Shown here one piece after another: positions 10,159 through 36,231 of a stretch of DNA of 42,030 bases; position 1 is the stretch's first letter; each line of letters starts with the position of its first letter. The stretch spans positions 1-42,030 of the forward strand of contig NZ_LXKA01000345.1 of NCBI RefSeq assembly GCF_001645125.1, in the 5' to 3' direction. The translations under genes and the position numbers were made by a program. Origin of the DNA: Paraburkholderia ginsengiterrae. Lineage in GTDB: Bacteria > Pseudomonadota > Gammaproteobacteria > Burkholderiales > Burkholderiaceae. The notes beneath the pieces are model-generated. The model made no database searches, had not been told where the DNA came from, and worked only from the letters and a program-made list of their open reading frames with translations.

Positions 10159-10302
10159 ATGCATCCCGATCCCCGAGCCGCCGTAGTCACCGACCGTCCA
10201 GCGATCGATATCGCGCTTTACTCGCGCATCGGTTATACGGAGACGCACCGCGCCGAGGAGAAAGGTCTGAAGCGGGTATTTATGGTGAAGCGTTTGGATT
10301 AG
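10159..10302 (+). pseudogene. C-terminal remnant of a GNAT acetyltransferase
   Basis: A 47-codon frame whose last 29 residues, beginning ALYSRIGYTETHRAEE and ending RVFMVKRLD, match the usual end of GNAT acetyltransferases (ALYxRxGF followed by a final strand). The acetyl-CoA binding motif and N-terminal half are missing and no continuation exists upstream, where the AraC gene ends. I read it as a decayed fragment; expression as a short peptide cannot be excluded. Confidence 0.5.
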
Positions 10303-10322
10303 TTGGTGATAACGTCGACAGA

Positions 10323-11255
10323 TCAAGCATCCGCTAAGTGATGCGAATGGTCGGCATGCGTGTGCTGCCGCAATTCGCCGGGAATGAAAACGCGTTCGAG
10401 TCCACCGTTATCGAGCCAGGCGCGAGTGTTCTCGGCCGCACGATCGATCAGGCGACCGCATTGCGTGTAGTCGTAGGGGGAAATGTCGAGCGGGCATAGC
10501 GGCGGCACGACAAAGATATCGGCCTGCTTCGTGTAGAACTCGAGATCGCGAATGAGCTGGCGAGCAATGACAAGCGTCAACGCATGCATGGCCTGAGCGA
10601 TCGGGCTGCTCGGCGGCGTGCGCAACGCACAGGCAAAGCCGGCGGGCAGCACAACAATACGTGTGGCCTGCAACCCGATGGCGACGGAAATGGGCGTGTT
10701 GTTCGCCACACCGCCGTCGACCAGGTCCACGCCGCCGATTCGGACCGGTGGAAATACACCGGGAATCGCCGCGCTCGCCAGGACCGCATCCACCACCGAG
10801 CCGGAGGAGAGGACGATTTCGTTGCCCGACAGCATTTCGGTCGCGACGATATGCAAGGGTAGCGCGGCCTGCTCCACACGCGCAAACGAGAGATTCTTCT
10901 CCAGCAGTTTGCGCAGCGCTGTTGCTTCGACGAGATGGGGGCGCCGCCTCAATATGATGTCGAGTAAGCCGAGCAACGAGAACGGCATGATGTCCTGCCG
11001 GCGAATCCGGCACCACAGCGCCTCGAGCATGGCGACACCGTCGGCGCTCGGGTAGCCCGCGAGATATGCCGCGTTGATCGCGCCCGCGGATGCACCGACG
11101 ACACAGCCTGGATGCTCACCACGCTTGAGCAATTCTCGCAGCATGCCGACTTCGATCGCTCCCAGACTGCCGCCGCCGGCGAAGACAAATGCGGTCAAGG
11201 GGGCACGAGGCGGGTTCGCCGGCGAATCCGGATTCGTGGTGAGAATCGATGACAT
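10323..11255 (-). CDS. Patatin-like phospholipase
   Basis: A 310-residue patatin-family lipid hydrolase with a Ser-Asp dyad: glycine-rich oxyanion loop FAGGGSLGAIEVG, nucleophile elbow GASAGA, and the Asp motif VDGGVANN (DGG rather than the commoner DGA). There is no signal peptide, and the C-terminus is His-rich (HTHADHSHH). The ATG at 11255 has GGAG seven bases upstream; a TTG at 11294 would add 13 residues. Bacterial patatins include both housekeeping and secreted toxic lipases. No secretion system is near, so a role cannot be assigned. Confidence 0.87.
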   Translation of the reverse strand: MSSILTTNPDSPANPPRAPLTAFVFAGGGSLGAIEVGMLRELLKRGEHPGCVVGASAGAINAAYLAGYPSADGVAMLEALWCRIRRQDIMPFSLLGLLDIILRRRPHLVEATALRKLLEKNLSFARVEQAALPLHIVATEMLSGNEIVLSSGSVVDAVLASAAIPGVFPPVRIGGVDLVDGGVANNTPISVAIGLQATRIVVLPAGFACALRTPPSSPIAQAMHALTLVIARQLIRDLEFYTKQADIFVVPPLCPLDISPYDYTQCGRLIDRAAENTRAWLDNGGLERVFIPGELRQHTHADHSHHLADA

Positions 11256-26206: not shown

Positions 26207-27328
26207 ATGCGCTTTTGTCATCTTCGTCATGAGGTCGCGGCTGCGGCCCTTGTTGCGTTCACCGGACTTCTTCTGTTCTGCCCGCCGCTTGCTATGGCGG
26301 CCGATGCCGAACTCAATGTCTACAACTGGTCCGACTACATCGCCAAGGACACGATTCCGAACTTCGAAAAAGACTCGGGCATTCATGTCAGATACGACAA
26401 CTACGACAGTGACGACACGCTGCAGGCCAAGCTTCTGGCGGGAAGTTCGGGATTCGACATCGTCGTGCCGTCGTCGCTTTACATGGCGAGGCAAATTCAG
26501 GCGGGCATCCTTCAGAAGCTCGACAAGTCGCAGATCCCGAATCTCAAGAATCTCGACCCGGTCCTTATGAAAATGGTCGCGGATGCCGATCCGGGCGCGC
26601 AATACGGCGTGCCTTGGGCGTACGGCACCGATGGCATCGGCTACAACGTGCAGGAAGTGAAGAAAGCGCTGGGTGACAACGCGCCCGTCGACAGTTGGGC
26701 CCTCATCTTCGATCCGGCAAACGTGTCGAAGCTGAAAAGCTGTGGCGTCTCGTTCCTCGATCAGGCCGGCGACGCATTCGCGACCGCGCTGCAGTATCTG
26801 CACAAGGATCCGAACAGCTCGAATCCCGCGGACTATCAGGCGGCCTTCGATCTGCTGAAGAAGGTGCGCCCATACATCACCCAGTTCAACTCGTCGGGCT
26901 ACATCAACGATCTCGCCAATAACGATGTCTGCGTGGCGCTGGGCTGGTCCGGCGACGTGGGCATTGCACGGCGGCGCGCGGCGGATGCGAAACGCTCCTA
27001 CGAGATCCGCTTCTCGAACGTCAAGGAGGGCGGCCTGTTGTGGTTCGACATGATGGTGATACCGAAGGACGCGCCGCATCCCGAAGCGGCCATGAAGTGG
27101 ATCAACTATATCGAGGACCCGAAGGTCAATGCGGCGATCACCAACGAGGTGTTCTATCCCACCGCGAACCGTGCCGCGCGGCCGCTCGTCAGCCCGGTCG
27201 TGTCGCAGGACGTGAGCGTTTATCCGCCCGACGACGTGCTGCGCAAAATGACGTTGATGAAGCCGTTGCCCATCGAGATTGTCCGGCTGGAAAACCGCCT
27301 TTGGGCGCAGCTTAAGGCGGGACGCTGA
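26207..27328 (+). CDS. PotF-like periplasmic polyamine-binding protein 1
   Basis: A 373-residue ABC-type substrate-binding protein of the PotD/PotF family with a signal peptide (cleavage near AMAAD). Conserved features include LNVYNWSDYIAKDT, the disulfide Cys pair Cys179/Cys242, GWSGDV with Asp250 at the place of PotF Asp247, and FDMMVIP with Asp281 at the place of PotF Asp278. It keeps these acidic residues that hold the amines of a diamine. Start ATG at 26207 after AAGGA. No permease or ATPase gene accompanies it; a DUF3138-like porin follows. The upstream region carries copy A of the cluster's control element. Confidence 0.9.
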   Translation: MRFCHLRHEVAAAALVAFTGLLLFCPPLAMAADAELNVYNWSDYIAKDTIPNFEKDSGIHVRYDNYDSDDTLQAKLLAGSSGFDIVVPSSLYMARQIQAGILQKLDKSQIPNLKNLDPVLMKMVADADPGAQYGVPWAYGTDGIGYNVQEVKKALGDNAPVDSWALIFDPANVSKLKSCGVSFLDQAGDAFATALQYLHKDPNSSNPADYQAAFDLLKKVRPYITQFNSSGYINDLANNDVCVALGWSGDVGIARRRAADAKRSYEIRFSNVKEGGLLWFDMMVIPKDAPHPEAAMKWINYIEDPKVNAAITNEVFYPTANRAARPLVSPVVSQDVSVYPPDDVLRKMTLMKPLPIEIVRLENRLWAQLKAGR

Positions 27329-27339
27329 TGGTGTCGAAT

Positions 27340-27404
27340 GGCGTGGTTTTAGCGAGCACCGATCGCCACGCCGTATGAAACCGCCGCCACGCTAAGGCCA
27401 CGCC
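27340..27404 (+). promoter_or_regulatory. Long intercistronic stem-loop between binding protein 1 and porin
   Basis: GGCGTGGTTTTAGCG (27340-27354) can pair in RNA with CGCTAAGGCCACGCC (27390-27404) over 15 positions, two of them G-U. A competing CCACGCC at 27366-27372 can pair with the first seven bases instead. It begins 12 bases after the stop codon. It may stabilise the upstream mRNA or limit read-through into the porin gene. Confidence 0.5.
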
Positions 27405-27577
27405 AGACCGCCCGCGCCGGTAACGCGCCGGCAACCTTCCCCTGATCTCAGCACGTTTTGTGAGCCGCCTCGCGCGCCTCGCATGGGAACGCCCGTGCAC
27501 GTTTTCCGTGAGCGGAAGGCATGCGGCGGCCAAGGCATCGGCAAGTTAATCGCAATACAAAAACGAGGAGACTTCGT

Positions 27578-29122
27578 GTGAGAAAGAAACTGATGTGTCT
27601 GCTGGTGGCGGGCTGTCTGCCCGGCATCGCGCTGGCAGACACCACGGCCGATCAAATAGGTGCATTGCAGGCGCAACTCGACGCGCTGCAAAAAGAGGTG
27701 AAGCGATTGCAGACGCAGCCGCCGGCCGGGCCGGCAGCCGCCGAGCCCGCCGCCGCTCCCGTCGATGTTTCGTCATCCGCGTATGGAAAAGCGCAGGCGA
27801 CGCTGACCAACGACGACGTTACCGCCATGAAGCAGCAGCTTGCCGTTCAGCAATTGAAGGTGAATTCGCTCGAAGACGCCGCGAATACCGGACCGATTGC
27901 CGGTCTTTCGGTGACGGGCTATATCGATCCGACCTACGTATATAACCGCGCGCAAAGCAGTTCCTCGTTCCTGTTCGCGAACCACGAAAGCACCGGTGGC
28001 TACTTCAACAGCACGTTCGGCGACCTGTACCTCGACATCAAGAAGACCTTCGGCGTCGGGCCGATGGCGCCGTCGGCTGAAATTACATTGATGCCCAATC
28101 GCGGCAACGGCATCACGCTGTTGCAGAACGAGCATGGGCAGATCGGCAACAACATTCTGAACACGGCAGTGGTCAGTGTGCCGCTGTCCGGCACGACGAC
28201 TTTCGTCGCGGGTCTGATGTCGAGCTTCGGTGGCTACGAAGTGCAGCAGTCGAATCAGATGCTTACGCTGACCCACAACCTGCTGTATGACTTCTCCGAC
28301 CCCGGCAGCTATATCGGCATTGGCGCGAACTACTCGAAGGGCAATTGGGCGTGGAAATTCCTGCTCGGCAATGAACAGTACCGGACCAATGGCGCCATCA
28401 CGCAGACCGGCACGAACGCGCTGGGCGATCCGATCACGACCAGCAACAAGGTGCCGACCTTCACAGCACGCGCGGACTATACGTGGTCGAGCGCACTCGA
28501 TATCGGGGCGTCGATCAACATCGGCCGCCAGAGTTTGCCGAGCGCCATCAATCCGACCACAGGGGCGGTGAGCTATGGCGTGAGCGGCCAGGCGCCCAGC
28601 GGTTTCGGCACGTTCTTCTTCTCGGAAGCCGACCTGACCTACCTGCTCGCCGACGTCCAGTACAACGTCGAGTTCGACTATGGCCAGCAACAGAACGCCG
28701 CGTTCAATGGCGGCCAGGCGCAATGGTATGGCGTCTCGCTGCTTGCGCATCGCAAGTTCAGCTTGCCCGGCGTCGGGCGGATGGGCGCGACGTTGCGCTA
28801 CGACTTCCTCGCAAACAGCAAGAACGGCGGCGGTGGCGGCGGCATTGCGTTGAACGGCCAGGGCCGCGACCCCTACAACGGGTTCGGCATCGGCGCGGAC
28901 TGCTTCGCCAATTCGCAGGCGAGCGGCGGCCTGGGGTTGCAGTGCAAGGGTTCAAATCGTCAGGACGTCGCGCTCGATCTGCTGTTTTTCCCGACTGAGC
29001 AGATTACGGTGAAGTTCGAGTACCGGCACGATTGGGCCAATAACAAGGTGTTCCTGCGTAACGATGGGTCGTATAGCAGTTCGAACGATCTTCTCGCCAC
29101 GCAGTTTATCTATTCGTTCTAG
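27578..29122 (+). CDS. DUF3138-like outer-membrane porin
   Basis: A 514-residue predicted beta-barrel with a signal peptide (MRKKLMCLLVAGCLPGIALA), an N-terminal coiled-coil (IGALQAQLDALQKEVKRLQ), a second helical segment (AMKQQLAVQQLKVNSLE) and then alternating strands ending in the outer-membrane signature FIYSF with a terminal Phe. Order and length match the DUF3138 family of Burkholderiales, often found beside transporter genes. I use the GTG at 27578 because GAGGAG lies seven bases upstream and the signal peptide then starts correctly. It probably lets polyamine-related solutes cross the outer membrane. Confidence 0.82.
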   Translation: MRKKLMCLLVAGCLPGIALADTTADQIGALQAQLDALQKEVKRLQTQPPAGPAAAEPAAAPVDVSSSAYGKAQATLTNDDVTAMKQQLAVQQLKVNSLEDAANTGPIAGLSVTGYIDPTYVYNRAQSSSSFLFANHESTGGYFNSTFGDLYLDIKKTFGVGPMAPSAEITLMPNRGNGITLLQNEHGQIGNNILNTAVVSVPLSGTTTFVAGLMSSFGGYEVQQSNQMLTLTHNLLYDFSDPGSYIGIGANYSKGNWAWKFLLGNEQYRTNGAITQTGTNALGDPITTSNKVPTFTARADYTWSSALDIGASINIGRQSLPSAINPTTGAVSYGVSGQAPSGFGTFFFSEADLTYLLADVQYNVEFDYGQQQNAAFNGGQAQWYGVSLLAHRKFSLPGVGRMGATLRYDFLANSKNGGGGGGIALNGQGRDPYNGFGIGADCFANSQASGGLGLQCKGSNRQDVALDLLFFPTEQITVKFEYRHDWANNKVFLRNDGSYSSSNDLLATQFIYSF

Positions 29123-29209
29123 CACGATTCACCGCTGCCGGGATTAGTGCAGATGATTCATAGATTATAGCTTCCCGCGTGATCGAGCCGGCCGTGGCTC
29201 CGATACAGA

Positions 29210-30118
29210 TCAGGCTTCGGGGCCGCGGCCGGAATTGCCTTCCTGACCCTGCGCGAGCAGCCATTCGAACATCTGCTCGACGATGGGCGAGCGCGAAGGC
29301 CCGGACACGCGCGATATCCACCACGTCATGCCCGGCAAACGCGGGTAATCGTCGAGGATGGTCAAAGCGTCTTCATCGATACTGCCTTGCGCCACCAGCC
29401 GGGAGAGGCAAGCAATGCCGCGTCCGCGCAACGCCGCGTCCAGCACGAGACGCTGATCGTCATAGATCGCGCTCATGCGAAAGGCCGACAGTTGCGCGCG
29501 GAAAATCGGCGCGGTGCTCTCGCTGGTCAGGTTTTCCTCGAGGCAGATGAGGCCCGTATGCAAATGATGCTTGGCGCGTGGCACGCGGTCTAATTTCGCC
29601 GCCAGTGCCGTGGCGCACACGGTCACCCACTCGTCTTGCAGAAACGGAAGTTCCAATAGCCCGGCCTGTTGCATTGGCCGCGCTCCGATCGTTAAGTCGA
29701 CGTCGATCTCATCGACGTAACGCGCGCTCTCATCAGTGGAAAGCAATGGACATAGATCGGGAAGTACCTGCTGCAACTGATCGAGACGCGGTTGCAGCCA
29801 ACCGTGCAGCAACGGAGCGGGGCACACCAGTACGACGAGCCCAGGGTCGAGGTACGTGGCGATCCGTCCGAGCCCGCTGCGCAGCGTTTCCATGGAGCGC
29901 TGCACGCTTCGCTGCAGCACCTCGCCGGCGACCGTCAGTTCCACGCCGCGGCCGATTCTGCGAAACAACGGTTGCCCCAGTTGCTCTTCGAGCTGCTGGA
30001 TCTGATGGCTGATGGCTGATTGCGACAGATGCAGTTCGTCGGCCGCGCGCGAGAAATTACCCAGTCTGGCGGCCGCTTCGAAGCCCATCAGCAGCTTCAG
30101 GGAGGGGACACGTTGCAT
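29210..30118 (-). CDS. LysR-family regulator of the agmatine/polyamine cluster (GcvA-like)
   Basis: A 302-residue LysR regulator of the GcvA/AmpR-like branch: PSLKLLMGFEAAARLGNFSR, helix-turn-helix AADELHLSQSAISHQIQQLE, LFRRIGRGVELTVAGE, then an effector domain with IDVDLTIGARPM and GRGIACLSRLVAQG. Its start codon lies three bases from copy B of the duplicated control element, which also serves aguA in the other direction. From position it should regulate itself, the aguA operon and, through copy A, the binding-protein/porin unit. Confidence 0.9.
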   Translation of the reverse strand: MQRVPSLKLLMGFEAAARLGNFSRAADELHLSQSAISHQIQQLEEQLGQPLFRRIGRGVELTVAGEVLQRSVQRSMETLRSGLGRIATYLDPGLVVLVCPAPLLHGWLQPRLDQLQQVLPDLCPLLSTDESARYVDEIDVDLTIGARPMQQAGLLELPFLQDEWVTVCATALAAKLDRVPRAKHHLHTGLICLEENLTSESTAPIFRAQLSAFRMSAIYDDQRLVLDAALRGRGIACLSRLVAQGSIDEDALTILDDYPRLPGMTWWISRVSGPSRSPIVEQMFEWLLAQGQEGNSGRGPEA

Positions 30119-30120
30119 TG

Positions 30121-30190
30121 AGATATGAGGAAAATTAATCGGTTAAGGCAATAAACATCATTTTTCATCAAGTGTAACCCGTATCACAAT
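30121..30190 (+). promoter_or_regulatory. Polyamine-cluster control region, copy B (LysR/aguA divergent)
   Basis: Counterpart of 25966-26035 without gaps. Half-sites are TGAGGAAAATTAAT (30126-30139) and the reverse complement of ATCATTTTTCATCA (30157-30170). TTTTCA at 30162-30167 and CACAAT at 30185-30190 are the matching -35 and -10 candidates, giving an aguA leader of roughly 25 bases. The first half-site is 8 bases from the LysR start, which suggests autoregulation. Confidence 0.62.
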
Positions 30191-30220
30191 ACCTCACCAC
30201 CTAACGATGGAGACACAGGA

Positions 30221-31258
30221 ATGAGTCGCTTTGACGCTCGCCAACATGGCTACCGGATGCCCGCTGAATGGGAAAAGATGCACACCACCTGGTTGGGATG
30301 GCCGATTCTGGAAGGCCGCGAAGACCTGTGGGGACCGCATTATCTGCGGGTTTGCCGGGAGTTCGCGCTGGTCGCGCAGACCATTGCCCGCTATCAGCGT
30401 TGCGTGGTGACGGCTCATCACAGTGAGGCGGATGCAGCGCGCGAGTTGCTCGGTAGCAGCGTCGAAGTGCTCGCCGTCGCGGCGGAAGACAACTGGCTGC
30501 GCGACTGCGGGCCGATTTTCCTGGTGGGCGAGGGTGGCCGGCTGGGCGCCGCTTCGTTCCGCTTCAACTGCTGGGGCGAGAAATACCAGCCTTACGACGG
30601 TTGCCAGCAGGTGGGGCAGGACATTGCCCGCGCGGCCGGAGCGCAAATTTTCAACTCTCATATGGTGCTGGAAGGCGGCGCTTTTTATGTCGATGGACAG
30701 GGCACGCTGATCACCACGGAAAGCTGCCTGCTGCATCCGAATCGCAATCCGCACATGAGTCGCGCGGAAATCGAGGCCGAACTCAGGCGTATGCTGGGAG
30801 TGGAGAAAATTGTCTGGCTGCCTGGTAATCCTGATGAAATTGAAACGAGCGGGCATGTGGACGGCATTGCGTCGTTTATTGCGCCAGGCAAGATGCTGTG
30901 CCAGAGCGCGAGCCCGGTGCAGGGCGATTACTTTCATGTGATGCGTGAGAATCGCCGCGCGCTGGAGCTGGCCACCGACGCAGCCGGGCGCCGCTTCGAA
31001 CTGCTCGATCTGCCCTCGCCGATTGTCAGCGAACGCTATGGCTCCGAGCGCTACTGCGATTGCTACGCGAACTACATTCTGGTCAACGGCGCGGTGATCT
31101 CGACCGCGTTTGGTGTGGAGCAGGATCAGGCCGCGCGCGAGGTCTTCGCTCAGGCGTTTCCGGAGCGGCGCGTCGAACTGCTGCCGATTCCCACTTTGTC
31201 GATCGGCGGCGGTAGCATCCATTGTTCGACGCAGCAGCAGCCAGCCACCACTCACTGA
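30221..31258 (+). CDS. aguA: Agmatine deiminase (cytoplasmic)
   Basis: A 345-residue PAD-fold guanidino hydrolase that converts agmatine to N-carbamoylputrescine and ammonia. All active-site blocks are present: NWLRDCGP (Trp92, Asp95), LEGGAFYVDGQG (Glu151), GHVDG (His212, Asp214) and GGGSIHCSTQQQP with nucleophile Cys335. It has no signal peptide. The ATG at 30221 has TGGAG eight bases upstream. It is the first gene of a same-strand series running through aguB, a second binding protein and two exported homologues. Control is probably by the divergent LysR. Confidence 0.93.
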   Translation: MSRFDARQHGYRMPAEWEKMHTTWLGWPILEGREDLWGPHYLRVCREFALVAQTIARYQRCVVTAHHSEADAARELLGSSVEVLAVAAEDNWLRDCGPIFLVGEGGRLGAASFRFNCWGEKYQPYDGCQQVGQDIARAAGAQIFNSHMVLEGGAFYVDGQGTLITTESCLLHPNRNPHMSRAEIEAELRRMLGVEKIVWLPGNPDEIETSGHVDGIASFIAPGKMLCQSASPVQGDYFHVMRENRRALELATDAAGRRFELLDLPSPIVSERYGSERYCDCYANYILVNGAVISTAFGVEQDQAAREVFAQAFPERRVELLPIPTLSIGGGSIHCSTQQQPATTH

Positions 31259-31294
31259 TCCGGACCGGATCCAATCATCGAAGGGAGACGTCAC

Positions 31295-32209
31295 ATGTCG
31301 TCGCGAAACATCACCGTAGCGTCGGTGCAAATGGCATCGGGCAGTTGGACCTTTGAAGACAATATGGCCACCGCGGAAAGACTGATCCGCGCGGCCGCAG
31401 CGCAGGGCGCCAACCTCGTACTGGTCCCCGAGCTTTTCACGATGCCGTACTTCTGTCTGGATCAGAACGTGCGGCATTTGGAACTGGCCGAACCGTTTGC
31501 AGACAATCCGCGGATTGCCCGCTTCGCGAAACTTGCCGGCGAACTGGGCATTGTGTTGCCCATTGGGTTTTTCGAGCGGGCCGGCAATGCCGCCTATAAC
31601 TCGATTGCCGTAGCTGATGCCGACGGCAAAGTACTCGGCGTGTATCGCAAGACTCACATTCCGGACGGTCCCGGCTATACCGAGAAGTTCTATTTCACGC
31701 CGGGCGACACCGGCTTCAAGGTGTGGGACACGCGCTTTGGCAAGATCGGCATCGGCATCTGCTGGGATCAGTGGTATCCGGAGACGGCTCGGAGCCTCGC
31801 CCTGATGGGCGCTGAAGTCCTGTGCTTTCCGACCATCATCGGGTCGGAGCCGTTCAGCAGCGAGTTCGACTCGGCGGGTCACTGGCAACGCACGATGCAG
31901 GGTCATGCGGCAGCGAATATGGTGCCGGTGGTGGCTGCCAACCGGATTGGCCGTGAGGTCGGCTTCGGCAACGGCAATCCACAACAGCAGGGACTCACCG
32001 GCGTGTTCTACGGTTCCAGTTTCATTGCGGATCATACGGGCGCGAAGGTGGCGGAGGCCAATCGCACGGACGAAACCATTCTTCTGCACACGTTCGATCT
32101 GAACGCCATTCGCGCGGACCGGCAGTCGTGGGGATTCTTCCGCGATCGCCGCCCGGAGATGTATCGCACGCTGCTAACCAGCGACGGCGCTTCTTCCTGC
32201 TATCGCTAA
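31295..32209 (+). CDS. aguB: N-carbamoylputrescine amidohydrolase
   Basis: A 304-residue nitrilase-superfamily amidase that hydrolyses N-carbamoylputrescine to putrescine, CO2 and ammonia. The catalytic triad is visible: Glu46 in LVLVPELF, Lys119 in YRKTHIPDGPGY and Cys156 in GIGICWDQWYPE. QQQGLTGVFYGSSFIAD and RRPEMYRTLLTSDG near the C-terminus are typical of AguB. AGGGAG precedes the ATG at 31295. It starts 37 bases after aguA and ends 11 bases before the next gene, so the three are clearly one operon. It has no export signal, so it acts in the cytoplasm. Confidence 0.93.
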   Translation: MSSRNITVASVQMASGSWTFEDNMATAERLIRAAAAQGANLVLVPELFTMPYFCLDQNVRHLELAEPFADNPRIARFAKLAGELGIVLPIGFFERAGNAAYNSIAVADADGKVLGVYRKTHIPDGPGYTEKFYFTPGDTGFKVWDTRFGKIGIGICWDQWYPETARSLALMGAEVLCFPTIIGSEPFSSEFDSAGHWQRTMQGHAAANMVPVVAANRIGREVGFGNGNPQQQGLTGVFYGSSFIADHTGAKVAEANRTDETILLHTFDLNAIRADRQSWGFFRDRRPEMYRTLLTSDGASSCYR

Positions 32210-32219
32210 GGAGTACGTT

Positions 32220-33332
32220 ATGAAAAAACACTGGCGCCTATCGTTCGCCGGTCTTGGTTTCTGTCTGTGTCTGTTCGCAGGGCAATCCCATGCCGAGGAA
32301 GAGAAAGTACTGAACCTGTACAACTGGAGCGATTATTTCGCCCCCGACACGTTGTCCGAGTTCCAGAAGGAAACCGGCATCAAGGTCCGTTACGACGCGT
32401 ACGACAGCGACGAGACACTGCAATCCAAGCTGATGACGGGCGACAGTGGCTACGACCTGGTGTGGCCGACTAACGATTTCATGGCGAAGCAGATCCAGGC
32501 CGGCGCGTTTCGCAAGCTCGACAAGAGCAAGCTGCCGAATCTCAGGAATCTGGACCCCGCGCTGCTGAAACTGATGGCGCAGTCCGATCCGGGCAATCAG
32601 TATGGCGTCCCCTACATGTGGGGGACGGTGGGCGTGGGCTACGACCGCGCCAAAGTCAGCGCGATCCTCGGCAAGGATATGCCGGCGGACAGCATGGACC
32701 TGCTGTTTAACCCGGCAATCGCGTCGCGCATCGCCGCTCACTGCGGCATCGGCTTGCAGGACTCCGCGAGCACGGTGTTGCCGTTGGCCCTGCGCTACGT
32801 TGGCCGCGATCCGGTGAATCCGACCGCGCTGGATTATGCGGTTGCGCAGACCATGCTGCTGAAGGCGCGGCCTAATATTCGTCTGTTCGTGGATTCGGCT
32901 AGCGCCAACGAGTTGATCGACGGCGAACTGTGCGTCATGGTCGGCTACTCAGGGGCGATTAACCTGGCCGCGCAAAAGGCGCGAGAGCTGGACCACAAGC
33001 GCGACGTTGTCTACGACATCCCGAGCATAGGCACGCTAATGTGGTTCGACGCCATGGTCATCCCCAAGACGGCGAAGCATCCGGACAATGCGCACGCGTT
33101 CATCAACTACATTCTGCGGCCGGACGTCGTGGCGAAGATCTCCAATGCCACGCGATACGCGAATGCCAATCAGGGCGCGCTGAGGTTGATGGACCCCGCG
33201 CTGATCAACAATCCGAACATCTATCCCGATGAGCAAAAGAAGCGGACTTTGTTTACGCCGGTGGCCGAAGCGCCCGCCACTGCTCGTCTGGAGGGTCGAA
33301 TCTGGCTTGGTCTCAAGGCGAGCAAGCCCTGA
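32220..33332 (+). CDS. PotF-like periplasmic binding protein 2, altered ligand pocket
   Basis: A 370-residue PotF-family binding protein with a signal peptide (cleavage likely SHA/EEE). Numbering runs almost in step with E. coli PotF: NWSDY at 35-39, Cys175 and Cys238 as the disulfide pair, and Asp277 in WFDAMVIP. But GYSGA has Ala246 where PotF has Asp247, and the DSASTV segment lacks the acidic residue near PotF 185. Both changes remove negative charge around one end of the ligand. It lies 11 bases after aguB with AAGGAG before its ATG. I infer a ligand with only one charged end, such as N-carbamoylputrescine. No permease gene is present. Confidence 0.88.
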   Translation: MKKHWRLSFAGLGFCLCLFAGQSHAEEEKVLNLYNWSDYFAPDTLSEFQKETGIKVRYDAYDSDETLQSKLMTGDSGYDLVWPTNDFMAKQIQAGAFRKLDKSKLPNLRNLDPALLKLMAQSDPGNQYGVPYMWGTVGVGYDRAKVSAILGKDMPADSMDLLFNPAIASRIAAHCGIGLQDSASTVLPLALRYVGRDPVNPTALDYAVAQTMLLKARPNIRLFVDSASANELIDGELCVMVGYSGAINLAAQKARELDHKRDVVYDIPSIGTLMWFDAMVIPKTAKHPDNAHAFINYILRPDVVAKISNATRYANANQGALRLMDPALINNPNIYPDEQKKRTLFTPVAEAPATARLEGRIWLGLKASKP

Positions 33333-33380
33333 GAAAAGGGTTATGCCGCAAGCTGTACCGATTGATATGAGGTGTTTTAC

Positions 33381-34493
33381 ATGACGACTAGACGTCATTT
33401 TCTGAAGCGGGGACTCATGGCATCCGGTGGTGCGCTGTTCTCTGGAGCGCTGGGCAGCAGCTTCTTCGGCGCGACCGCGTTCGCGCAAAGCGCCAACTGG
33501 AACATGCCGGACGAGGGCGGCGCTCACGCGGCGACCTGGATGGCGTTCGGTCCCAGCGAGGAAATCTGGGGCGGCAAACTGCTGCCCGTGGTCAGAGAGA
33601 ACCTGGCTGGCATTGCGAAGGCCATCGCGGCACACGAGCCGGTAAAAATGCTGGTGCGGGAGGAGGACCACGACATCGCCGCCCGCCTGTGCGGCGGCGC
33701 GGTCGAACTCGTGCCTCAACCAATCGATGACCTGTGGATGCGGGATACCGGGCCCGTGTTCGTCAAAGGACCCGCAGGGCAGCTTGGCGCGGTGGGCTTT
33801 AACTTCAACGGCTGGGGTAACAAGCAGGAACACGAGCAGGACGCGGAAGTCGCGTCGTTCGTCGCGCGCAGAGCCGGGGCGAAGCTGCTCGACACGCGTC
33901 TGGTCCTGGAAGGCGGTGGCATTGAAGTAGACGGAGAAGGCACGGCCATCATCACCGAGAGCTGCGTGCTGAATGCCAATCGCAATCCCGGTGTTGGCAA
34001 AGCGCAGTGCGAAGCGGAACTGTCCCGCCTGCTCGGGCTGCGGAAAATCATCTGGCTGCCAGGCATTGCAGGCAAAGACATTACCGATGGCCATACTGAT
34101 TTCTACGCACGCTTTACGAGCCTTGGCGTGGTGGTTGCCGGGCTCGATCCGGATCCGTCTTCCTACGACCACGCGGTGACGAAGCGTCACCTGGACATCC
34201 TGCGAAAGTCCACCGATGCGAAGGGCCGCCCGTTGAGAGTTGTGGTGCTGCAAGGCCCGACGACCGTGCGCCGGAAGTATGAGAACGATCAGTTCGCCGC
34301 CGGCTACGTCAACTTCTACGTGTGCAATCGCGCGGTGATTGCCCCGGAGTTCGGCGACAGCAAAGCGGACCGCAATACGCGCGACATTCTCGCGGATCTT
34401 TTTCCCGGGCGGGATGTGATTCAGCTGAATATCGATGGCGTGGCAGCCGGTGGTGGAGGAATCCACTGCACGACACAACAGCAACCCAGGTGA
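33381..34493 (+). CDS. Exported (Tat) agmatine deiminase-family protein
   Basis: A 370-residue PAD_porph-family guanidino deiminase with a twin-arginine signal at the very start (TTRRHFLKRG, hydrophobic stretch to about residue 34, cleavage near AFA). The active-site set is complete: LWMRDTGP (Trp119, Asp122), LEGGGIEVDGEG (Glu177), GHTD (His238, Asp240) and GGGGIHCTTQQQP (Cys363). It should fold in the cytoplasm and work in the periplasm on agmatine or a related guanidine, possibly peptidyl arginine as in the Porphyromonas member. GAGG precedes the ATG at 33381. It is 48 bases after the second binding protein, in the same orientation. Confidence 0.88.
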   Translation: MTTRRHFLKRGLMASGGALFSGALGSSFFGATAFAQSANWNMPDEGGAHAATWMAFGPSEEIWGGKLLPVVRENLAGIAKAIAAHEPVKMLVREEDHDIAARLCGGAVELVPQPIDDLWMRDTGPVFVKGPAGQLGAVGFNFNGWGNKQEHEQDAEVASFVARRAGAKLLDTRLVLEGGGIEVDGEGTAIITESCVLNANRNPGVGKAQCEAELSRLLGLRKIIWLPGIAGKDITDGHTDFYARFTSLGVVVAGLDPDPSSYDHAVTKRHLDILRKSTDAKGRPLRVVVLQGPTTVRRKYENDQFAAGYVNFYVCNRAVIAPEFGDSKADRNTRDILADLFPGRDVIQLNIDGVAAGGGGIHCTTQQQPR

Positions 34494-34544
34494 TCAGATT
34501 CTCGAGCTGCCGTGGGACGGCGGCTCGCTTGTGATTGATTTCGT

Positions 34545-34596
34545 GGTCGAATTTTCGACCGAACACTGAAGCGGTTTCCCTGATGATTGAAATCAT
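34545..34596 (+). promoter_or_regulatory. Hairpin and palindrome between the two exported deiminase genes
   Basis: GGTCGA-ATTT-TCGACC (34545-34560) is a compact stem-loop that may end the upstream transcript. ATGATT-GA-AATCAT (34583-34596) is a perfect 6-bp inverted repeat that could be an operator of the downstream gene; it faintly resembles the half-sites of the cluster's duplicated element. The 205-base gap suggests the last deiminase gene may have its own promoter. Confidence 0.4.
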
Positions 34597-34698
34597 GCCG
34601 TGGGCACATGTCCTGGCAGGGAGAGCTGTCGGCCGGCGTTTCGTATCCGCGAAAAACCACCGAGCTATTCCCGGGATGCCGCGAGCAATAAGAGGTAA

Positions 34699-36231
34699 AT
34701 GGACATGGCGGCAAACAAAGACAATCAGACGTTGGACGCATCGATCAAGCGTAAGCCGGTGACGCGTCGCGGCTTTATCAAAGGATCAGCGTCGTTGCTG
34801 GGATTTTCACTGGTGGGCACGTTGGCGGCTTGTGGCGGTGGCGGTGAATCGCCGGGTTCGTCATCGGAATCTTCGACGTCGCCGCCATCGTCACAGAAGC
34901 CACCCGTCGCGCTCCAGGCTCCGTATCTGATGCCGAGCGAGGATTCACTGCATACAGCAACGTATATGGCATTCGCTTCGGGTTCGGAAGGGATCTGGGC
35001 ACCGGTCACAGCACAGAGCACGGACGCGGGCATTGATCGGGTTCGTGCTGACCTGATGGACGTGGCCAAAGCAATCGGCACGTATGAGCCGGTCAACATG
35101 CTGGTGCTGCCGGTCGACCTGAGCGCCGCGCAGGCTTTGCTGACGATGCCGAGCGGCGCGAATCCCGCCATCCATGCGAACTACCTGGCGCGTGGCACCG
35201 GCGTGGGCGGCGTCAAACTTATCGCATTAGCCAATGGCTTCGACGATTTCTGGACGCGCGACACGGGCTGCGTCTTCGTCAAGGACACGGCCAATAGCAA
35301 CGCATTGTGCGCGGTGAATTTCAACTTCAACGGCTGGGGCAACGCGAATACGGACGGCGTCAATCTCACCCCCGGCATGACGGTGACCGCTTCGGTTGCC
35401 GCAAGCAGCAACAAATCGAAAGCAGGCAAATTCTTCCAGCCGTTTGCGAACGACCACACGCTGGCAGCGTGGATGGCGAAGGCGAGCAACGCGACGCTGA
35501 TCCAGAGCACGTTGACACTCGAAGGCGGGGCGATTGAATTCGACGGCGAGGCGACGGCGATCCTGACGGAATCCGCGGTGCTGCACGTCAATCGCAATCC
35601 ACAACTGTTCGCCATTCCGAACGGTGTAGTCGCCAATGCGAAGCTGCTGCCAACGGCCAAAGACACGGTGCTTGCGGAGTTGCGACGCACGCTCGGGGTG
35701 CAGAAGATCATCTGGATCCCGGGCACGGCAACCTTTCCGCAAGGCGCCGGCGTCGGCGCTCAAGGCGGCGCGGCGACGCCTGACAAGGAAACCGACATCA
35801 CGAATGGGCATGTCGACTTCTACGCGAAATTCCTCGCGCCCGGAGTTGTCGCGTACGCGGCCGATCCGGCCAACTCGACCTATGAACAGGCACTGATGCG
35901 CGCCAACTTCAGCCGCCTGTCGGGTCAATCGGATGCGAAGGGGCGGCCACTTACCCTGATTGCGTTGAATGCGCCAGGCACCTACTGCACCTCCAACGGC
36001 GTCACGTTGAGCGACAGGCAGATGACGAATTTTGCCGCGGGCTATATCAACTTCTACAAATGCAACGGGGCGATCATCGTTCCGAAGTTCAACGATGTTG
36101 CGGCCGATGCCGCCGCTGTGGCGACTATCCGACCGTATGCCGGCTCACGAGCGATTGTCCAGGTGGATATTCTGGGTATTGCGTCGGGTGGGGGCGGCGT
36201 GCATTGCTCGACTCGTGAACTCCCTGCTTAG
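34699..36231 (+). CDS. Exported Tat-lipoprotein of the agmatine deiminase family
   Basis: A 510-residue divergent member of the family, about 140 residues longer than its neighbour. The signal combines a twin-arginine motif (TRRGFIKGS, residues 22-30) with a lipobox LAAC (Cys45), followed by a Ser/Gly/Pro linker, so it is probably a lipid-anchored envelope protein. Active-site residues persist: FWTRDTG (Trp185, Asp188), LEGGAIEFDGEA (Glu275), GHVDF (His371, Asp373) and VHCSTRELP (Cys503). It differs at RDTGC (Pro replaced by Cys) and at REL instead of the usual QQQ after the nucleophile. Inserts lie around residues 215-255 and 343-363. Start at 34699 or 34705. The substrate may differ from agmatine. 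Confidence 0.85.
   Translation: MDMAANKDNQTLDASIKRKPVTRRGFIKGSASLLGFSLVGTLAACGGGGESPGSSSESSTSPPSSQKPPVALQAPYLMPSEDSLHTATYMAFASGSEGIWAPVTAQSTDAGIDRVRADLMDVAKAIGTYEPVNMLVLPVDLSAAQALLTMPSGANPAIHANYLARGTGVGGVKLIALANGFDDFWTRDTGCVFVKDTANSNALCAVNFNFNGWGNANTDGVNLTPGMTVTASVAASSNKSKAGKFFQPFANDHTLAAWMAKASNATLIQSTLTLEGGAIEFDGEATAILTESAVLHVNRNPQLFAIPNGVVANAKLLPTAKDTVLAELRRTLGVQKIIWIPGTATFPQGAGVGAQGGAATPDKETDITNGHVDFYAKFLAPGVVAYAADPANSTYEQALMRANFSRLSGQSDAKGRPLTLIALNAPGTYCTSNGVTLSDRQMTNFAAGYINFYKCNGAIIVPKFNDVAADAAAVATIRPYAGSRAIVQVDILGIASGGGGVHCSTRELPA

What the first reader, a model, noticed from the sequence alone, without database searches (positions are those of the whole stretch)
26207..36231. Agmatine cluster with two exported agmatine-deiminase homologues beside the cytoplasmic one
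The sequence shows three PAD_porph-family genes in one 6-kb series: one without a signal (30221), one with a Tat signal (33381) and one with a Tat signal plus lipobox (34699). All keep the Cys/His/Asp/Glu active-site set. Known agmatine pathways (AguA plus AguB, or SpeB) are cytoplasmic; the only well-known exported member is the Porphyromonas peptidylarginine deiminase. I infer a two-compartment pathway in which guanidines are deiminated in the periplasm or at the envelope, perhaps to capture agmatine or to strip ammonia from it outside. I know of no described system of this layout.
Basis: partly seen in the sequence, partly recalled or inferred. Interest (0 to 1): 0.82.

Follow-up and report, generated by a model that had tools for sequence, protein, structure and literature searches.

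The report
Agmatine operon with exported deiminases
The genes form a known kind of agmatine-breakdown operon, already described in Pseudomonas aeruginosa, in which one deiminase works inside the cell and another is exported; this Burkholderia-type version adds a third deiminase that looks lipid-anchored and a binding protein whose pocket looks remodelled, perhaps for the pathway's half-finished product.

Summary
Three PF04371 deiminase genes lie at 30221-36231: one without signal, one with a Tat signal, one with Tat signal plus lipobox; one search found no others in the genome. The claim that no such layout is known is wrong: LysR / deiminase / N-carbamoylputrescine amidase / PotF-like binding protein / Tat deiminase is the agu2ABCA' layout. 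A P. aeruginosa record has the same order, and its Tat signal is that of PA14_48450 Agu2A', an experimentally identified Tat substrate (PMC6085387). AguB passes its equivalog cut-off, which points to agmatine; the exported copies lack PPAD's two carboxylate-binding arginines. New: (1) the lipoprotein copy, conserved in Paraburkholderia and Burkholderia, also found in a separate binding-protein / DUF3138 porin / lipoprotein cluster; (2) the operon's binding protein has Ala at PotF D247, Thr at E185 and Asp at S87 in 14 of 14 distinct orthologues; none of 27 other rows has Ala247 or Asp87. I infer that it binds N-carbamoylputrescine, made in the periplasm, for import to AguB. Localisation, activity and ligand are untested.

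The parts
26207..27328 (+). SBP1: PotF-like binding protein with an N-terminal signal (by eye); PotF sites D39, D247, D278 kept, D at E185, L at S87
27521..29122 (+). DUF3138 / BBP2 predicted outer-membrane beta-barrel porin
   Evidence: PF11336 903.5 bits; PF07642 67.5 bits
29210..30118 (-). LysR-type regulator (best NCBIfam match GcvA, below its cut-off), divergent from the deiminase operon
   Evidence: kept beside A' in other genera
30221..31258 (+). AguA-like deiminase without signal (Agu2A position)
   Evidence: 44% identical to the P. aeruginosa counterpart
31295..32209 (+). AguB, N-carbamoylputrescine amidase (over TIGR03381 cut-off)
   Evidence: 58% identical to the P. aeruginosa counterpart
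32220..33332 (+). SBP2: PotF-like binding protein (Agu2C position) with PotF D247 to A, E185 to T, S87 to D
   Evidence: 44% identical to the P. aeruginosa counterpart, SBP1 37%
33381..34493 (+). Tat deiminase (Agu2A' position)
   Evidence: 51% identical to P. aeruginosa Agu2A'
34699..36231 (+). Tat lipoprotein deiminase, 510 aa, with inserts beside the FNFNGWG motif and before the catalytic His

Best explanation
This is an agu2-type agmatine operon with an added envelope branch. Proposed flow: agmatine crosses the outer membrane, perhaps through the DUF3138 porin. In the periplasm the Tat deiminase and the lipid-anchored deiminase convert it to N-carbamoylputrescine plus ammonia. SBP2, whose pocket has lost carboxylates for one cationic end, captures N-carbamoylputrescine and hands it to a polyamine ABC transporter encoded elsewhere; cytoplasmic AguB then makes putrescine. 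SBP1 and cytoplasmic AguA serve agmatine taken up intact. Shown: gene order, signal motifs, families, catalytic residues, conservation, pocket residues. Inferred: substrate, localisation, SBP2 ligand, porin role, transporter partner. The stated confidence is for the core (agu2-type operon, agmatine deiminated in the envelope as well as in the cytoplasm); I give the SBP2 and import steps about 0.3.
For: Same order in P. aeruginosa, its Tat signal that of PA14_48450 Agu2A'. AguB over the equivalog cut-off. Catalytic residues kept. Tat motif in 16 of 17 full-length Burkholderia/Paraburkholderia A' rows and Tat plus lipobox in 17 of 17 lipoprotein rows (counted by eye). Lipoprotein model closest to agmatine deiminases. 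PPAD Arg152/154 sites are Gly in the exported copies. SBP2: A247, T185, D87 in 14 of 14 distinct sequences; A247 and D87 in 0 of 27 other rows. PMC8666671 (passages): D247, D278 and E185 at least 96% conserved in 250 homologues, D247 a key carboxylate for one terminal amine. A Phyllobacterium plasmid clusters a Tat deiminase with an ABC transporter, AguB and a second deiminase. 3 of 4 full-length DUF3138 genes of the genome lie within about 3.2 kb of a PotF-like gene.
Against: None of the three deiminases reaches TIGR03380. P. aeruginosa Agu2C keeps D247 and E185, so the ligand change is not general to agu2 operons. An uncharged residue at 185 is not unique to SBP2: 3 of the 27 other rows have A, Q or N there. 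The 14 SBP2 sequences share ancestry, so this may be one event. No transporter permease was found beside SBP2. LysR-A' pairs occur without AguA, AguB and SBP2 nearby (4 loci read, L067-L070; also G004), so the exported enzyme does not need these partners. In G193 (L060) the A' frame shows no Tat motif. The two Rhizobium relatives of the lipoprotein have no lipobox. The window LysR is 34% identical to the P. aeruginosa one.
Confidence: 0.55

Rival explanations
1. The exported deiminases remove agmatine outside the inner membrane as a signal or stress compound, with no import of the product; SBP2 binds something else or acts as a sensor.
For: LysR-A' pairs without AguA/AguB/SBP2 nearby in 4 loci read of genera g11 and g24, and G004 keeps LysR and A' after losing the three genes between. 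agu2ABCA' is reported to be preferentially expressed in biofilm, to enhance biofilm with agmatine, and to have little effect on agmatine levels compared with aguBA (PMC4287709, PMC4211729, passages).
Against: In all 5 other genus genomes with the AguA plus A' pair, AguB and SBP2 lie between them, and AguB uses the product of deimination.
Confidence: 0.25
2. The lipoprotein acts on a different guanidine substrate, such as free arginine, other guanidino compounds or peptidyl-arginine at the cell surface.
For: It is the most divergent of the three (44-46% to A' rows, 34% to AguA rows), carries inserts next to the FNFNGWG motif and before the catalytic His, and occurs without A or A' nearby in the SBP1-DUF3138-lipoprotein cluster.
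Against: PPAD's carboxylate-binding arginines are replaced by Gly, invariant in 14 of 14; sequence and fold are closest to agmatine deiminases.
Confidence: 0.15
3. The signals are inefficient or cryptic and all three deiminases are redundant cytoplasmic enzymes.
For: No localisation was measured here; one A' relative (G193) lacks the Tat motif in frame.
Against: Tat motif in 16 of 17 A' rows, Tat plus lipobox in 17 of 17 lipoprotein rows; the homologous Agu2A' is an experimentally identified Tat substrate (PMC6085387).
Confidence: 0.05

Closest known systems
agu2ABCA' operon of P. aeruginosa PA14 (PMC4287709, PMC4211729, PMC6085387, passages; original Mol Microbiol 2010 paper not held)
   Same: Order of deiminase, amidase, PotF-like binding protein and Tat deiminase behind a divergent LysR gene, as read in a P. 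aeruginosa plasmid record; Tat signal of the last enzyme
   Different: The window adds a Tat lipoprotein deiminase and an upstream SBP1-DUF3138 pair; SBP2 has a changed pocket; protein identities 44-58%, LysR 34%
aguBA of P. aeruginosa
   Same: Agmatine to N-carbamoylputrescine to putrescine
   Different: aguA and aguB under the TetR-type AguR (PMC4287709); no exported copy in it (recalled)
Porphyromonas gingivalis PPAD
   Same: PF04371-type fold and catalytic residues; exported (recalled)
   Different: Arg152/Arg154 absent here; PPAD has an added Ig-like domain while Pfam finds only PF04371 in the window proteins; weaker fold match to the lipoprotein model (target TM 0.59-0.62 against 0.80-0.86 for plant, E. 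faecalis and S. mutans agmatine deiminases)
PotF putrescine-binding protein
   Same: Family of SBP1 and SBP2
   Different: SBP2 lacks D247 and E185 and has Asp at S87

Membership tests
agu2ABCA'-type operon | Gene order deiminase, aguB, PotF-like SBP, Tat deiminase, divergent LysR | tested here: met
agu2ABCA'-type operon | Last deiminase exported by Tat | tested here: inconclusive
   Motif present; export itself not testable here
agu2ABCA'-type operon | Induction by agmatine, effect on biofilm | not testable with these tools
   needs culture
Agmatine deiminase (TIGR03380 equivalog) | Score over 381.8 bits | tested here: not met
   287.1, 247.7, 150.5
Guanidine deiminase family PF04371 | Score over cut-off and catalytic Asp, Glu, His, Asp, Cys | tested here: met
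N-carbamoylputrescine amidase (TIGR03381) | Score over 410.25 bits | tested here: met
   462.6
Peptidylarginine deiminase of PPAD type | Arg152 and Arg154 binding the substrate carboxylate | tested here: not met
   Hand alignment of one short motif: PPAD peptide printed in PMC4893104 ending VDFIYNR152 with VNFNFNG of the lipoprotein; Gly at both sites, invariant in 14 of 14; A' Gly/Gly, AguA Cys/Gly
PotF putrescine binder (SBP2) | D247, D278, E185 present | tested here: not met
   D278 kept; D247A and E185T in 14 of 14
Tat lipoprotein (34699) | Twin-Arg motif and lipobox | tested here: met
   by motif only, lipidation itself not tested

The most novel reading that the evidence does not exclude
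A split agmatine pathway in which deimination happens in the envelope, on free and lipid-anchored enzymes, and the intermediate N-carbamoylputrescine rather than agmatine is carried inward by a dedicated binding protein derived from PotF, with DUF3138 as the outer-membrane channel. I saw no N-carbamoylputrescine receptor in the listings (15 of 17 papers listed) or of the other paper searches, so it could be the first.
Probability: 0.3. Interest if true: 0.62.

Novelty: new variant of a known kind. Interest (0 to 1): 0.42.

Why it matters
If right, part of agmatine breakdown is moved into the periplasm and its product imported. That would give Agu2A'-type enzymes a metabolic reason to be exported, a putative role to the DUF3138 porin family and a new ligand to the PotF family. 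Agmatine is common in plants and many Paraburkholderia live in soil and on plants (general knowledge, not from a call). The binding-protein prediction is directly testable with purified protein.

Tried and rejected
Peptidyl-arginine deiminase function: set aside as the leading reading (specificity residues and fold). Catalytically dead copies: rejected, catalytic residues kept. Uniqueness of the window: rejected. Lipid anchoring unique to this clade: doubtful; a Tat plus lipobox N-terminus is also seen in a Tsukamurella plasmid (L093, by the pattern) and, by eye where that pattern printed none, in g24 (L070, LGAC) and g21 (L072, L073, LLSC). The idea that SBP2's change is general to agu2 operons failed: P. 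aeruginosa keeps D247 and E185. The idea that Phyllobacterium lacks a second deiminase failed: one lies beside the cluster. The tree places the lipoproteins with the other Tat-exported rows, but that fork (89/96) is not starred and long branches are flagged, so origin by duplication of A' is not settled. The own-genome search with TIGR01187 (148 matches) was too broad to name the transporter partner. Paper searches for exported, secreted or lipoprotein agmatine deiminases showed no lipoprotein deiminase in their listings; one search listed 20 of 351 papers.

Full report
What is there. On the + strand: PotF-like SBP1 26207-27328, DUF3138 porin 27521-29122, LysR (minus strand) 29210-30118, AguA-like deiminase 30221-31258, AguB 31295-32209, PotF-like SBP2 32220-33332, Tat deiminase (A') 33381-34493 and Tat lipoprotein deiminase 34699-36231. 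Gaps between the genes from 30221 to 34493 are 36, 10 and 48 bases; 205 bases precede the lipoprotein gene (from these coordinates). All three deiminases exceed the PF04371 cut-off and are the only three matches found in the genome. Two TatC genes are encoded. PF04371 as such is common: it rings in 5 of 14 control genomes.

It is a known layout. A P. aeruginosa plasmid record, NZ_CP131792.1, carries LysR (opposite strand), agmatine deiminase family, aguB, solute-binding protein, agmatine deiminase family in the same order. The N-terminus of the last contains the signal printed for PA14_48450 Agu2A' in PMC6085387, which counts it among 8 experimentally identified Tat substrates of that species (passages). 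PMC4287709 and PMC4211729 (passages) describe agu2ABCA' as a second agmatine operon, preferentially expressed in biofilm. Identities to the window: AguA 44%, AguB 58%, SBP2 44%, A' 51%, LysR 34%.

Distribution. In 98 genomes of the genus, 13 have a PF04371 match. From I count 6 of 98 with the AguA plus A' pair (G000, G022, G037, G047, G049, G050) and 5 of 98 with a full-length lipoprotein (the same without G047; G022 has two). The other 7 of the 13 have A' alone (G004, G080), another cytoplasmic type (G018, G019, G068) or an odd distant form (G029, G073). In 300 genomes of the family, 37 match at E 1e-20 (which scored at most 5 candidates a genome). The lipoprotein itself (68% identity or more) is in the own genome and in 10 others, which hold 13 copies, all in one other genus (g12). 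I take g12 as Burkholderia because G361:C14 has the length and position of named record L034, and G347:C1 the position of L036. Of the 13 copies, 10 lie next to an A' gene by the coordinates; of the other 3, two (L034/L059 and L036) were read and lie behind SBP1 and DUF3138, and one (G300:C2) was not read. Layout varies: in G049 the lipoprotein is on the opposite strand, in P. sediminicola (L035) it sits behind the porin, in G022 and BL21I4N1 (L033) there are two copies, and G047 and G227 have the pair without a lipoprotein nearby. Two Rhizobium MAG relatives (48-51% identity, L037, L039) have a twin-Arg but no lipobox and none of the other cluster genes in the flanks held.

Signals. Of 17 full-length Burkholderia/Paraburkholderia A' rows, 16 show the Tat motif and one (G193, L060) does not in its frame; of 17 lipoprotein rows, 17 show Tat motif and lipobox (counted by eye, cut duplicates left out).

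Core unit. In four loci read from genera g11 and g24 (L067-L070) a LysR and A' pair stands without AguA, AguB or SBP2 nearby. In G004 the A' reading frame begins like AguA, as after an internal deletion of AguA, AguB and SBP2. So the exported enzyme can be kept without these partners.

Chemistry. D188, E275, H371, D373 and C503 of the lipoprotein are invariant in 14 of 14 rows. Its AlphaFold2 model (mean pLDDT 74.6, pTM 0.77, residues 1-71 under 50) matches plant and bacterial agmatine deiminases best (target TM 0.80-0.86) and PPAD less well (0.59-0.62). PMC4893104 (passages) assigns PPAD's preference for C-terminal arginine to Arg152 and Arg154; its printed peptide ending VDFIYNR152 aligns by eye with VNFNFNG, giving Gly at both sites, invariant in 14 of 14; A' has Gly/Gly, AguA Cys/Gly. 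AguB passes its equivalog cut-off. These points favour agmatine. Against: no deiminase here reaches the TIGR03380 cut-off.

The binding proteins. PMC8666671 (passages) puts S38, D39 and D247 of PotF at one terminal amine and S85, S87, A182, E185, D278 and L348 on the other side, and reports D247, D278 and E185 at least 96% conserved in 250 homologues. In 14 of 14 distinct SBP2 sequences the sites read A247, T185, D87, D278; D39 is N in 5 and E in 1 of them. Of the other 27 rows (SBP1 orthologues, own-genome paralogues, other PotF-like proteins; the window's SBP1 counted twice) none has A247 or D87; 26 have D247 and the Phyllobacterium one Y. At 185, 3 of these 27 are also uncharged (A, Q, N). 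P. aeruginosa Agu2C keeps D247 and E185. I read SBP2 as adapted to a ligand with one neutral polar end and one amine, which N-carbamoylputrescine is. This is an inference from residues, and the 14 sequences are not independent.

Transport. None of the 20 window proteins scanned is an ABC permease or ATPase. A Phyllobacterium plasmid has a Tat deiminase (72% identical to A' over 90% of it), an ABC ATPase, two permeases, a binding protein, an aminotransferase, aguB, LysR and a second deiminase in one cluster. It links an exported deiminase with import of this type in another lineage; its binding protein is only distantly like SBP2 (132 bits).

Verdict. An already described operon type in a Burkholderia-type variant. 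The added lipoprotein, its link to SBP1-DUF3138 and the changed SBP2 pocket are the new points. Statements about what is not in print rest on the listings in an open-licence library.

Noticed in passing
27521-29122 and the own genome: DUF3138 porins sit near PotF-like genes: 3 of 4 full-length copies in the own genome (C346, C24, C350) lie within about 3.2 kb of one, the fourth (C289) does not by the matches listed; suggests a polyamine or agmatine channel family.
   Followed up: partly
L066 7209-8405 (G004): A' reading frame preceded by a start like AguA's: apparent deletion of AguA, AguB and SBP2, with LysR and A' kept.
   Followed up: partly
L038: Apparently decayed copy of the cluster in an uncultured Paraburkholderia (Vmac symbiont) assembly: several genes appear as broken pieces.
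   Followed up: no
L093 4890-6005: Tsukamurella plasmid: deiminase relative with twin-Arg and lipobox-like N-terminus near pks13 and fadD32.
   Followed up: no
L014, L015: Distant 475-aa PF04371-like proteins without a signal in two genomes of the genus (G073, G029); the one in the tree has a very long branch.
   Followed up: no
L060 (G193), A' at 10192-11226: The only A' row of 17 without a Tat motif in its frame; may be a changed or misread N-terminus.
   Followed up: no
30194-32089 and 33036-34484, minus strand: Long open frames antisense to the deiminase genes; probably by-products of G+C-rich codon use.
   Followed up: no
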